Source: Blattabacterium cuenoti
Lineage (GTDB): Bacteria > Bacteroidota > Bacteroidia > Flavobacteriales > Blattabacteriaceae
DNA: 64,000 nt
Reading direction: 5' to 3'
Assembly (NCBI RefSeq): GCF_014252275.1
Contig: NZ_CP059214.1
Location: 125,906-189,905 of the forward strand
Both the position numbers and the translations under genes were made by a program. Positions 25,527 through 32,490 of the stretch are shown in pieces (positions within the stretch are counted from its first letter, which is position 1; each line of letters begins with the position of its first letter). The notes under the pieces were generated by a model. It did not search any database. It was not told where the DNA came from and worked only from the letters and a program-made list of their open reading frames with translations.

Positions 25527-28124
25527 ATGTTAGAACCAGGAACGTTGAAAATCTATCCCGCTTCGGCAGGTTCTGGAAAAACTTCTTTTTTAATCATAAA
25601 TTATCTTTATGTGTTATTTAATAGTAAAGATCCTTATGAATTTAAGAAAATTCTCGTTTTAACATTTACGAGAAAATCTTCCGAAGATATGAAAACACGT
25701 ATTTTAAATTGTCTTCATGATTTCTCTGTAGGAAAGATACAGAAATCTTCTTATCCTATGTTTCAATACCTGATAAATCTCAATAAAGAATACGTTTTAA
25801 CGAAAGAAAAATTATTTTATCATTCTAAAAAAATATTGAATGAAATTTTTCATGATTTTTCTTCTTTTTCTAACAATATAAGTACTTTGGATAAGTTCAC
25901 TTATCGAATTGTTCGTACGTTTCTTTCTCGTAAAAAATGTTCATTAGAAATGAATACCCATCACTTTATCCAACAAGTAGTAAAAAATATTTTACAAAAA
26001 TTGAAAATATCAGAAAAATGGTCAAAAATTTTAATCCAATTCTCTCTTGAAAAATTTCAAAGAGGACAATCATGGAATATAATAAAAGATCTTCAACAAA
26101 TGATCTTTTTATTAATGGATGAAAATCAATATTTCTTTATAAAGAAAATAGAGAATTTTTCTTTCACAAATTTCATTACATTAAAAGATATTTTAACGAA
26201 AAGAATTCGATTTTTTGAAAAAAAGTGTGAATTGCAAGGAATACTATTTTATAATTTTATAAGAGAACAATCCATTAATGAAAATTCATTCATTTATTCA
26301 GATTTACCTAGATTATTTGATAATATGAAAATGAAAAAATTACTGGTGAATCCATTTACAAAACGTCTTGAAAAGAATATGAAGAATGGGGTAATTTTTT
26401 CTAAAAAATATTTAAATAATAAAAAAAACGGTGGGTTTCAACAGAAAGAAAAAATTATTTCTTTATATGAAAAAACAAAAAAGTTCTATCAAAAACATAT
26501 TCAATGTTATCTCATTGATAAAGTTTGTAAAAGACATTTATGGATCTTTTCTATGATTCATGAAATAAAAAAAGAATGTTCTTTTTTAAAAAAAGAAAGA
26601 AACATTCTCCTTCATTCAGAATTAAATCAAATTCTTTATGAAAAAATTACTCATTTCATTCCAAAAATTTATGAAACTTTTGGAATGAAATATCAATATT
26701 ATTTTATAGATGAATTTCAAGATATTTCTTATTTACAATGGGAAAATATAAAAATTTTATTAGAGAACTCTTTATCAGAAAATGGATCATCTATTATAGT
26801 AGGAGACGCAAAACAATCTATCTATCGATGGAGAGGAGGAAGTGTAAAACAATTTATCCATCTCATGGATTCAAAGAGCAAATTTTATAAAAAAGATATA
26901 GTTCGACTATCAACGAATTTTAGAAGTTTTAAGGAAATTGTTCAATTTAACAACACTTTTTATCAATATTTCTCGGAAGTTTTTCAAAATACTCCATATA
27001 AAAAAATATATGAAAACGTTGGTCAAAACATATCTAAAAAAATAGGAGGATATGTTGAAATAAATTTCTTCCACAAGATGTTTTTGAAAAAGGAAAATTA
27101 TCAAGAATACATATATCATAAAATTATAAATAAAATAAATAAATTTTTATTACATAATCAATATAGTTTATCAGATATTGCTTTATTGGTAAGAACTAAT
27201 GAAGAATGTAATTTTTTATGCGAAAGACTCATGGAAGATGAATTTCTCGTTCATGATCCTGGAACGGTATTAATCAAAAACCATATTGAAATTCAGATTA
27301 TTATTAATGTTTTTGAGATCCTTTCTCATCCTTTTTCTTATGAAAAACGTTTTTCTTTGATTTCTTTATTATTGAAAAATAAATTTTTTATTAGAAAAAA
27401 AAATCTTCATAACTTCATTGAAACATGCATTTTTCTTCCATTGAATTTATTTTTGGATAAAATTTTATCCAAAAATTCTATTACACTAGAGAAAATATAT
27501 AACAAATCCATCTATCAAATTTCAGAAATTATTATAGAATCATTTAATTTATTTCATTTAAATAACGCTTCTTGTCTCTATTCTTTTTTAGACGTTGTTT
27601 ATAGAAATGAACAAAAAAATATGGCAAATTCAATTGCAGATTTTTTATATCATTGGGATTCTATAAAAGATAAAGAAAACATTGTCTTTTCCAGTAAAAA
27701 TAAAAAAAATATGATTAATGTGATGACCATCCATAAATCTAAAGGACTTCAGTTCCCTATTGTGATAATTCCATTTACAGATTGGAATATTTTTTCAAAA
27801 AAAAAGGAAGGAAAATGGATTCATGTTGATCCTATATTCTATCAAGGATTGGAATATGTATATATCGAGATGAAAAGTAATTTCCATAAAAATATACGAA
27901 ATCATGAAAAAATAAAACATATATATAATGATTATATTTTAGACATTATATTAGATAATATTAATTTGTTGTATGTTGCGACCACTCGTCCTATTGAACA
28001 ACTTATTTTATTTTCAAAATTAGAAAATAAACCATCTATTTCCCATTATATCAAAAATTTTTTGAACAAAAAAAACCTTTGGAATAATAAAAAACATCAA
28101 TATTCTTTTGGAAAAGAATTTTAA
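25527..28124 (+). CDS. UvrD/RecB/AddA-like helicase lacking the C-terminal nuclease
   Basis: Superfamily 1A DNA helicase. All main motifs can be read: Walker A ASAGSGKTSF near residues 12-21, motif Ia LTFTRKSSEDMKTRI, motif II FIDEFQDIS, motif III VGDAKQSIYRWRGG, motif IV STNFRS, motif V MTIHKSKGLQFP and motif VI LLYVATTRP at about 814. The beginning PGTLKIYPASAGSGKT is typical of the Bacteroidetes AddA/RecB-like exonuclease subunit. Those proteins run to about 1050 residues with a terminal PD-(D/E)XK nuclease; here only about 50 residues follow motif VI. lipA begins on the opposite strand 8 bases later, so no remnant remains. No AddB/RecC-like partner is in the window. Confidence 0.85.
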   Translation: MLEPGTLKIYPASAGSGKTSFLIINYLYVLFNSKDPYEFKKILVLTFTRKSSEDMKTRILNCLHDFSVGKIQKSSYPMFQYLINLNKEYVLTKEKLFYHSKKILNEIFHDFSSFSNNISTLDKFTYRIVRTFLSRKKCSLEMNTHHFIQQVVKNILQKLKISEKWSKILIQFSLEKFQRGQSWNIIKDLQQMIFLLMDENQYFFIKKIENFSFTNFITLKDILTKRIRFFEKKCELQGILFYNFIREQSINENSFIYSDLPRLFDNMKMKKLLVNPFTKRLEKNMKNGVIFSKKYLNNKKNGGFQQKEKIISLYEKTKKFYQKHIQCYLIDKVCKRHLWIFSMIHEIKKECSFLKKERNILLHSELNQILYEKITHFIPKIYETFGMKYQYYFIDEFQDISYLQWENIKILLENSLSENGSSIIVGDAKQSIYRWRGGSVKQFIHLMDSKSKFYKKDIVRLSTNFRSFKEIVQFNNTFYQYFSEVFQNTPYKKIYENVGQNISKKIGGYVEINFFHKMFLKKENYQEYIYHKIINKINKFLLHNQYSLSDIALLVRTNEECNFLCERLMEDEFLVHDPGTVLIKNHIEIQIIINVFEILSHPFSYEKRFSLISLLLKNKFFIRKKNLHNFIETCIFLPLNLFLDKILSKNSITLEKIYNKSIYQISEIIIESFNLFHLNNASCLYSFLDVVYRNEQKNMANSIADFLYHWDSIKDKENIVFSSKNKKNMINVMTIHKSKGLQFPIVIIPFTDWNIFSKKKEGKWIHVDPIFYQGLEYVYIEMKSNFHKNIRNHEKIKHIYNDYILDIILDNINLLYVATTRPIEQLILFSKLENKPSISHYIKNFLNKKNLWNNKKHQYSFGKEF

Positions 28125-31509: not shown

Positions 31510-32490
31510 TTATTTGTAATTATTTATAATACTTAAGAAGTATTCAATAGATTCATATAAACTTTTATTTAATATACCTCCTGCAGCATTTTTATGTCCT
31601 CCACCTCCGAAATATTTTCTAGAAAATAAATTAACATCGAAATCACCTTTTGAACGAAAAGAAATCTTGATAGGAAATGTTTCCCTTTCCTCAAAAAAAA
31701 AAGCTGAAAATACAATATTTTTTATTCCTAATCCATAATTAGTTATTCCATCTGTATCCCCCTTTTTGTATGGATAACGTTGAAGATCTAAGGCATTAAT
31801 GAATGTATAAGCAGTTCGATGGTTTGGTATAATTTTGATTCTTTTTAAGGCAATAGATAATAATCTTAATTTGTTTTCATTATACTTTTCTTGCAAATGA
31901 TTATAAATCAAAGGGATATTGATTCCTTTTTCAATAAGTTTTCCTGCAATAAAATGACTTTCTGAGGTAACAGAAGGATAACGAAAATAACCAGTATCCG
32001 TCATTAAACCAATGTATAAACATGTTGCAATATCTTTATCTAATTTTTCCAAATTATTCATATATGATATGAATCGAAAAACCATCATACTTGTCGATGG
32101 TACTGTTGTATCATAAAACATAAAATCACAATTCATAGGAAATGGATGGTGGTCAATTAATCCTTTTTTTGCTTTTGAGGAAAAAAAGGATTCTTTTAAT
32201 TCCCCGATACGGGATACATTATTGCAATCAATAAGAAAAATATAATCTGATTCATTAATTTTTTTTTGAATCGAATTTTTTTTTGTTTCGGAAAATATGA
32301 TAATTTCTTTGACTCCTGGAATCCATTGAAAAGATTTTGAATATGTTGTAGGAGATATAATAGATACTTTATTCCTTAATTTTTTAAAATAAAAAAAAAG
32401 TGCTAAAGATGAACCTAATGCATCTCCATCTGGATTATTATGGGGTAATAAAATTATTTTTTTTTTACTTATTTCATGAAGATTAATCAT
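31510..32490 (-). CDS. nrnA: DHH-family phosphoesterase (NanoRNase / pAp phosphatase, NrnA-like)
   Basis: Degrades very short RNA oligonucleotides and, in characterised relatives, 3'-phosphoadenosine 5'-phosphate. The manganese-binding motifs are PHNNPDGDALGSS near residues 16-28, FLIDCNN, the DHH motif in LIDHHPFP, and the late Asp in MTDTGYFR. The C-terminal DHHA1 domain ends in GGGHKNAAGG. At 326 residues it fits NrnA. It is the last gene of the dapD-tsaC-cca-nrnA run, four bases after cca, and is convergent with the redoxin gene with one base between them. Confidence 0.9.
   Translation of the reverse strand: MINLHEISKKKIILLPHNNPDGDALGSSLALFFYFKKLRNKVSIISPTTYSKSFQWIPGVKEIIIFSETKKNSIQKKINESDYIFLIDCNNVSRIGELKESFFSSKAKKGLIDHHPFPMNCDFMFYDTTVPSTSMMVFRFISYMNNLEKLDKDIATCLYIGLMTDTGYFRYPSVTSESHFIAGKLIEKGINIPLIYNHLQEKYNENKLRLLSIALKRIKIIPNHRTAYTFINALDLQRYPYKKGDTDGITNYGLGIKNIVFSAFFFEERETFPIKISFRSKGDFDVNLFSRKYFGGGGHKNAAGGILNKSLYESIEYFLSIINNYK

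What the first reader, a model, noticed from the sequence alone, without database searches (positions are those of the whole stretch)
25527..28124. AddA/RecB-like helicase that has lost its nuclease domain
All helicase motifs are intact up to motif VI at about residue 814, but only about 50 residues follow, where relatives have a roughly 200-residue PD-(D/E)XK nuclease. lipA on the other strand starts eight bases later, so the loss is complete. Either the protein now works only as a helicase, or it relies on a nuclease in a partner not seen here. This would change double-strand-break repair in the symbiont.
Basis: partly seen in the sequence, partly recalled or inferred. Interest (0 to 1): 0.5.

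Follow-up and report, generated by a model that had tools for sequence, protein, structure and literature searches.

The report
Break-repair helicase without its nuclease
A cockroach symbiont keeps a DNA-break-repair machine whose motor protein has lost its own DNA-cutting domain, apparently leaving the cutting to a partner protein, which may leave the machine permanently in its repair-ready state.

Summary
The 865-aa ORF is an AddA/RecB-type SF1A helicase with intact motor motifs. It stops at the helicase-nuclease linker and no PD-(D/E)XK domain follows. The loss is not strain-specific: all 49 genomes searched in the genus (two match named Blattabacterium cuenoti records) carry an 846-878 aa form, and a 1.3-Mb relative has 883 aa. 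Outside the family, 112 of 118 genomes of the order have a 986-1257 codon frame, and 33 of 33 AddA C-termini read keep the nuclease. A profile of that domain finds nothing in 59 of 59 family genomes searched and hits 8 of 8 controls.

The partner exists: 49 of 49 genomes have one AddB-like protein with an intact nuclease site, here about 355 kb away. RecA is in 49 of 49; RecJ, RecO and RecR were not found in 13 of 13 sampled. Best reading: a one-nuclease AddAB. In Bacillus the AddA nuclease cuts the 3' strand and Chi works by keeping that strand from it, so losing the domain should leave the enzyme always post-Chi, resecting only the 5' strand. That step is inferred. Against: addB is frame-split in 13 of 49 genomes.

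In 173-200-kb relatives the AddA motor is dead too (6 of 8 read), while the AddB nuclease site persists.

The parts
25527..28124 (+). addA-like gene, 865 aa, RecB-like SF1A helicase without C-terminal nuclease
25563..25583 (+). helicase motif I (Walker A), SAGSGKT
   Evidence: K18 and T19 in 49 of 49 genus proteins
26703..26723 (+). helicase motif II, FIDEFQD
   Evidence: D395, E396, Q398 in 49 of 49
26799..26837 (+). helicase motif III, VGDAKQSIYRWRG
   Evidence: Q430 in 49 of 49
26907..26927 (+). helicase motif IV, LSTNFRS
   Evidence: R466 in 49 of 49
27723..27758 (+). helicase motif V, MTIHKSKGLQFP
   Evidence: T734, H736, G740 in 49 of 49
27966..28004 (+). helicase motif VI, LLYVATTRPIEQL
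   Evidence: R821 in 49 of 49
28047..28121 (+). end of the protein, residues 841-865: the conserved segment that in outgroups leads into the nuclease domain; the protein stops 3 residues after G862
   Evidence: alignment; tail lengths; G862 in 48 of 49 genus and 13 of 13 outgroup proteins
   Evidence: coordinates; the name lipA was not tested

Best explanation
The gene encodes the motor subunit of a one-nuclease AddAB complex. AddA unwinds the broken end with its 3'-5' motor but has no nuclease for the 3'-ended strand. The nuclease left is that of AddB, encoded about 355 kb away, which in Bacillus cuts the 5'-ended strand. In the Bacillus model Chi works by keeping the 3' strand away from the AddA nuclease; without that domain the enzyme should behave from the start as if it had already met Chi: remove the 5' strand, leave a 3' tail and let RecA load on it, with no phase that destroys both strands. 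Shown here: the domain loss and that it is old, the intact motor, the intact AddB nuclease site, RecA present, and no RecJ, RecO or RecR detected in the genomes sampled. Inferred: that the two proteins form a complex, the strand polarity, independence of Chi, and RecA loading through the helicase part.
For: Motor residues invariant in 49 of 49. Same truncated form in 49 of 49 genus genomes and in G050. Nuclease present in 33 of 33 outgroup AddA C-termini read and absent by profile from 59 of 59 family genomes searched, 8 of 8 controls positive. AddB-like PD-(D/E)XK protein over the Pfam cut-off in 49 of 49, catalytic columns H, D, D-Y-K and Q..Y in 49 of 49. RecA in 49 of 49. RecJ, RecR, RecO models: no match in 13 of 13 sampled genus genomes. 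dN/dS medians in 25 close pairs: addA 0.21, addB N part 0.31, addB C-terminal 280 residues 0.23. Mechanism transferred from passages of PMC4824097, PMC4027173 and PMC5443536.
Against: addB is split between two or three frames in 13 of 49 genus genomes, so full-length AddB there needs slippage or the sequences are wrong. AddB has no PDB match at E<=1 and only sub-cut-off AddB model scores. addA and addB are far apart, as in the free-living G070. No interaction, polarity or activity was measured. The mechanism is taken from distant bacteria.
Confidence: 0.62

Rival explanations
1. AddA now works alone as a helicase (for example at stalled forks or against recombination, as UvrD and Rep do), and AddB is a separate or vestigial nuclease.
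For: The motor is complete without the nuclease. addB, not addA, is frame-split in 13 of 49 genomes. The N part of addB evolves faster than addA (median dN/dS 0.31 against 0.21).
Against: AddB nuclease residues are invariant in 49 of 49, and both genes are kept in 49 of 49. The genome already has a UvrD-like gene with a 728-codon frame. In the nine family genomes of other small-genome genera (G049, G051-G055, G057-G059) neither a PF12705 nuclease nor an AddA-length match was found, so the two genes appear to go together.
Confidence: 0.17
2. Both genes are decaying by drift in a shrinking genome; the truncated AddA is a step towards loss with no distinct function.
For: Nine relatives in other small-genome genera lack detectable AddA and AddB; addB is split in 13 of 49 genomes; G050 has a RecJ broken by stops.
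Against: addA open in 49 of 49 with all listed motor residues kept, at 46-59% identity to the window protein; dN/dS well below 1; catalytic AddB residues kept in 49 of 49.
Confidence: 0.12
3. The AddA nuclease domain was split off and is encoded by another gene.
For: Split helicase and nuclease genes occur in other systems (recalled).
Against: The AddA-nuclease profile A2 matched 0 of 59 family genomes at E<=1 and 8 of 8 outside controls; PF12705 matched once per genus genome, in the AddB-like ORF.
Confidence: 0.03
4. The truncation is a sequencing or annotation error.
For: These genomes are AT-rich with long homopolymers, which are prone to indel errors.
Against: 49 of 49 genomes end within 1-9 residues of the same position; a six-frame search of 58 family addA loci found no nuclease remnant (best E 2.2); the next gene is 8 bases away.
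Confidence: 0.01

Closest known systems
AddAB (RexAB) of Bacillus subtilis and of free-living Flavobacteriales
   Same: SF1A motor subunit related to AddA/RecB; an AddB-like partner with a PD-(D/E)XK nuclease.
   Different: AddA has no nuclease domain, so one nuclease instead of two; genes about 355 kb apart here, while in G128, G159 and G174 they lie about 3 kb apart.
RecBCD of E. coli
   Same: One active nuclease in the complex; RecB-type motor.
   Different: In RecBCD the live nuclease is on RecB and the RecC one is dead (PMC1185551 passages); here the motor subunit lost it and the AddB-like subunit keeps it. No RecC or RecD model was run.
UvrD/PcrA/Rep helicases
   Same: SF1A motor without nuclease.
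   Different: The protein scores better with RecB-like models (NF010485, TIGR00609) than with PcrA, Rep or UvrD models, and the genome has another UvrD-like gene.
Frameshifted genes rescued at poly(A) tracts in insect symbionts (Blochmannia, Buchnera)
   Same: addB frame breaks at A or T runs in AT-rich genomes; phenomenon described in PMC3017870 (passages).
   Different: Rescue is not shown for addB; recurrence at one site in several genomes is seen here.

Membership tests
AddA (motor subunit of AddAB) | Complete SF1A helicase motifs I-VI | tested here: met
AddA (motor subunit of AddAB) | C-terminal PD-(D/E)XK nuclease | tested here: not met
AddA (motor subunit of AddAB) | Score over the cut-off of a curated AddA or RecB-like model | tested here: not met
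   NF010485 168.3 bits against a cut-off of 650; TIGR02785 107.6 against 707.65
AddAB complex | AddB partner with an intact PD-(D/E)XK nuclease | tested here: met
   49 of 49 over the PF12705 cut-off; catalytic columns in 49 of 49; AddB identity rests on sub-cut-off models and similarity to outgroup AddB
AddAB complex | Helicase-like, Chi-recognising N part of AddB | tested here: inconclusive
   No family hit to the N part in this genome; in G050 a weak UvrD_C hit, 439-536, E 0.00059, under the cut-off
AddAB complex | Physical AddA-AddB complex with strand-specific cutting | not testable with these tools
   needs biochemistry; the AddA fold model was too poor to use
RecBCD | Nuclease on the RecB-type motor subunit | tested here: not met
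RecBCD | RecC and RecD subunits | not tested
   no RecC or RecD model was run on the genome; PF00580 found only this gene and one UvrD-like gene

The most novel reading that the evidence does not exclude
In this symbiont family AddAB has been dismantled in order: first the AddA nuclease, leaving in Blattabacterium a resection machine that is always in its post-Chi state, and then, in relatives with 173-200-kb genomes, the AddA motor itself, leaving a long AddA pseudo-enzyme kept by selection as a scaffold for the AddB nuclease. The 5'-strand nuclease of AddB would then be the last indispensable activity of the complex.
Probability: 0.4. Interest if true: 0.75.

Novelty: new variant of a known kind. 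Interest (0 to 1): 0.5.

Why it matters
Control of DNA-end resection by Chi is a central part of the accepted models for AddAB and RecBCD, and the Bacillus model predicts what removing the AddA nuclease should do. Here evolution appears to have made that deletion and kept it in every genome searched of a genus, with RecA present and no RecJ, RecO or RecR detected in the genomes sampled. It is a natural test of whether the destructive phase and Chi are needed in a sheltered intracellular bacterium. The family also orders the parts of AddAB by how long they are kept: AddB nuclease site, then the AddA motor, then the AddA nuclease.

Tried and rejected
Nuclease remnant in or around the family addA genes: six-frame search of 58 loci, best E 2.2, nothing credible. 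Nuclease remnant in the 131-177-residue tails that six of the eight small-genome AddA proteins have: profile comparison gave probability 0.1%, so not claimed either way. Split-off nuclease gene: rejected. AlphaFold2 of AddA with 4 sequences: mean pLDDT 47, unusable, no fold search made. AddA of one small genome, G061, was not found in the 40 kb read, so small-genome AddA counts are out of 8, not 9. My first motif pattern missed 7 of 20 extra outgroup C-termini; the profile search found all 20 and the motif was then printed for those 7. Sequencing error as the only cause of the addB splits: disfavoured but not excluded; addA has 504 A/T runs of 8 or more against 646 in addB and no split in 49.

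Full report
What is there. The window lies in a single-contig genome of 561,052 bases. The gene at 25527-28124 (+) is open and 865 aa long. Its best curated matches are RecB-like helicases (NF010485, E 2.5e-49, 168.3 bits against a cut-off of 650; TIGR00609, E 2.1e-42, also under its cut-off). Pfam finds UvrD-helicase and UvrD_C and no nuclease family at E<=1. Motifs I to VI are present and 39 residues follow the last one.

Which organism. All 49 genomes searched in the genus carry the gene. The window's own strain was not named by any search.

How old is the loss. In the genus the protein is 846-878 aa (start codons chosen by alignment) and ends 1-9 residues after the position of the conserved glycine 862. 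A 1.3-Mb relative in the same family, G050, has 883 aa and a 27-residue tail. Outside the family, 112 of 118 genomes of the order have an AddA frame of 986-1257 codons; the other six (G089, G090, G097, G147, G157, G158) gave fragments, a contig-edge piece or weak partial hits (my count from its table). I read 33 outgroup AddA C-termini, 13 in whole proteins and 20 more ends; 33 of 33 carry the domain and its motif. A profile of the domain built from those 13 hits 8 of 8 outside genomes not used to build it and 0 of 59 family genomes: 49 of the genus, G050 and 9 small genomes. In a tree of the helicase part of 25 proteins, one branch (support 99/100) separates the 13 outgroups from the nuclease-less proteins, so one loss is enough; the program warns of unlike amino-acid composition, and several inner branches are weak.

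The partner. This genome has one PF12705 nuclease match, inside an 878-aa ORF (GTG start) at G000:C1:509345-511981, about 355 kb from addA. All 49 genus genomes have one match over the cut-off. The catalytic columns H, D, D-Y-K and Q..Y are kept in 49 of 49 and in G050. In the 9 small genomes they are kept wherever readable, with E for the second D in three and one H column masked in G064. By sequence the protein is AddB-like: TIGR02786 E 7.1e-10 here and E 1.8e-19 in G050, both far under the cut-off, with similarity over most of its length to the AddB proteins of six free-living relatives. In three of these, G128, G159 and G174, addB lies about 3 kb from addA; in G070 it does not. No PDB chain matched it at E<=1.

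The pathway around it. RecA is in 49 of 49 genus genomes, G050 and 7 of 9 small genomes. RecJ, RecR and RecO models found nothing in 13 of 13 sampled genus genomes and 9 of 9 small genomes; the two free-living genomes in the same searches were positive for all three. G050 has RecR, a RecJ in pieces with stops, and no RecO hit. Among the routes searched, AddAB is the only one left that could prepare an end for RecA; RecF, RecN, RecQ and SbcCD were not searched.

Selection. Eleven motor residues checked across motifs I-VI are invariant in 49 of 49. For 25 close pairs among the 36 genus genomes with unsplit addB, median dN/dS is 0.21 for addA, 0.31 for the N part of addB and 0.23 for its last 280 residues, which are the lower of the two addB parts in 20 of 25.

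How it would work. From passages of two papers: B. subtilis AddAB has one motor and two nucleases, one per strand; Chi is thought to keep the 3' strand from the AddA nuclease while the AddB nuclease goes on degrading the 5' strand (PMC4824097; PMC4027173). Taking the AddA nuclease away should therefore mimic the Chi-activated state all the time. It need not cost RecA loading: in Caulobacter RecA appears to bind the N-terminal helicase part of AddA, unlike RecB, where it binds the nuclease domain (PMC5443536, passages). These are transfers from distant bacteria. Compared with RecBCD, whose RecC nuclease is dead and RecB nuclease live (PMC1185551, passages), the arrangement is reversed.

A further step in relatives. 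A genus of 173-200-kb genomes in the same family (by size and family probably Karelsulcia; this name is recalled and comes from no call) also has both proteins. AddA was read in 8 of its 9 genomes. In two (G063, G066) the motor motifs stand. In the other six (G056, G060, G062, G064, G065, G067) most of motifs I-V are gone; in G067 the ORF as read begins after motif I. Yet these ORFs are open over 828-953 codons. For two pairs, letting one ORF drift at the observed synonymous difference gives on average 77 and 48 stop codons; none is seen. Pair dN/dS for addA is 0.29 (G064-G065) and 0.42 (G062-G067), but 0.60 (G056-G062) and 0.71 (G063-G066) in more divergent pairs, so constraint is weaker than in Blattabacterium. 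The AddB nuclease residues remain, although in G063 the addB match falls in two separate ORFs. So the motor can be lost while the protein and its partner's active site are kept.

What speaks against. addB is split between frames in 13 of 49 genus genomes, at 14 junctions, all with the same frame change and all with an A or T run of 8 or more at or beside the overlap. In one more, G027, the first 70 residues were not matched in the frame. addA is split in none of 49. Such homopolymer frameshifts can be rescued by transcriptional slippage in insect symbionts (PMC3017870, passages), but here rescue is unproven, and sequencing error or early decay are possible. In two cases a close relative has the frame intact (G041 beside G001 and G047; G045 beside G018 and G021), so the breaks may be recent or recurrent, and the low dN/dS does not show selection after them. 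The fold model was too poor to use.

Prior work. I searched the open-licence PMC library ten times and in the listings and passages seen found no description of an AddAB whose motor subunit lacks its nuclease, nor of this gene in Blattabacterium. Most subscription papers are not in that library, so this is a weak negative. A study of eight Blattabacterium genomes says that the genus has lost many repair genes and lacks genetic recombination (PMC6128925, passages); RecA and AddAB-type genes in 49 of 49 genomes sit uneasily with the second statement.

Verdict. The protein fails one defining feature of AddA, its own nuclease, so I call it an AddA-derived helicase of a one-nuclease AddAB: a new variant of a known kind.

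Noticed in passing
addB loci L040, L043, L051, L054, L057, L060, L065, L071, L075, L077, L085, L086, L087 (13 of 49 genus genomes): addB is split between frames at 14 junctions, all with the same frame change and all at or beside an A or T run of 8 or more; seven lie near the same place, about residue 135. Candidate transcriptional slippage, early decay or sequencing error.
   Followed up: partly
L089, L090, L093, L178, L180, L181 (173-200-kb relatives G056, G062, G067, G060, G064, G065): AddA homologues that have lost most helicase motifs yet stay open over 828-953 codons, beside an AddB with intact nuclease residues.
   Followed up: partly
G000 and 12 further genus genomes; 9 small genomes; G050: RecA is kept while RecJ, RecO and RecR models find nothing in the genus genomes sampled; in G050 RecJ is in pieces with stops.
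   Followed up: yes
AddB of free-living Flavobacteriales and of the genus (alignment): The cysteine before the P-x-x-F-Y motif, an iron-sulphur ligand in some AddB proteins (recalled), is N or another residue in 5 of 6 outgroup AddB proteins and in this genome's AddB; G078 has it.
   Followed up: no
window 31510-32490 (-): A 326-aa ORF that looks by eye like a DHH-type phosphoesterase; the RecJ model found no match in this genome, so it is not a RecJ by that test.
   Followed up: no
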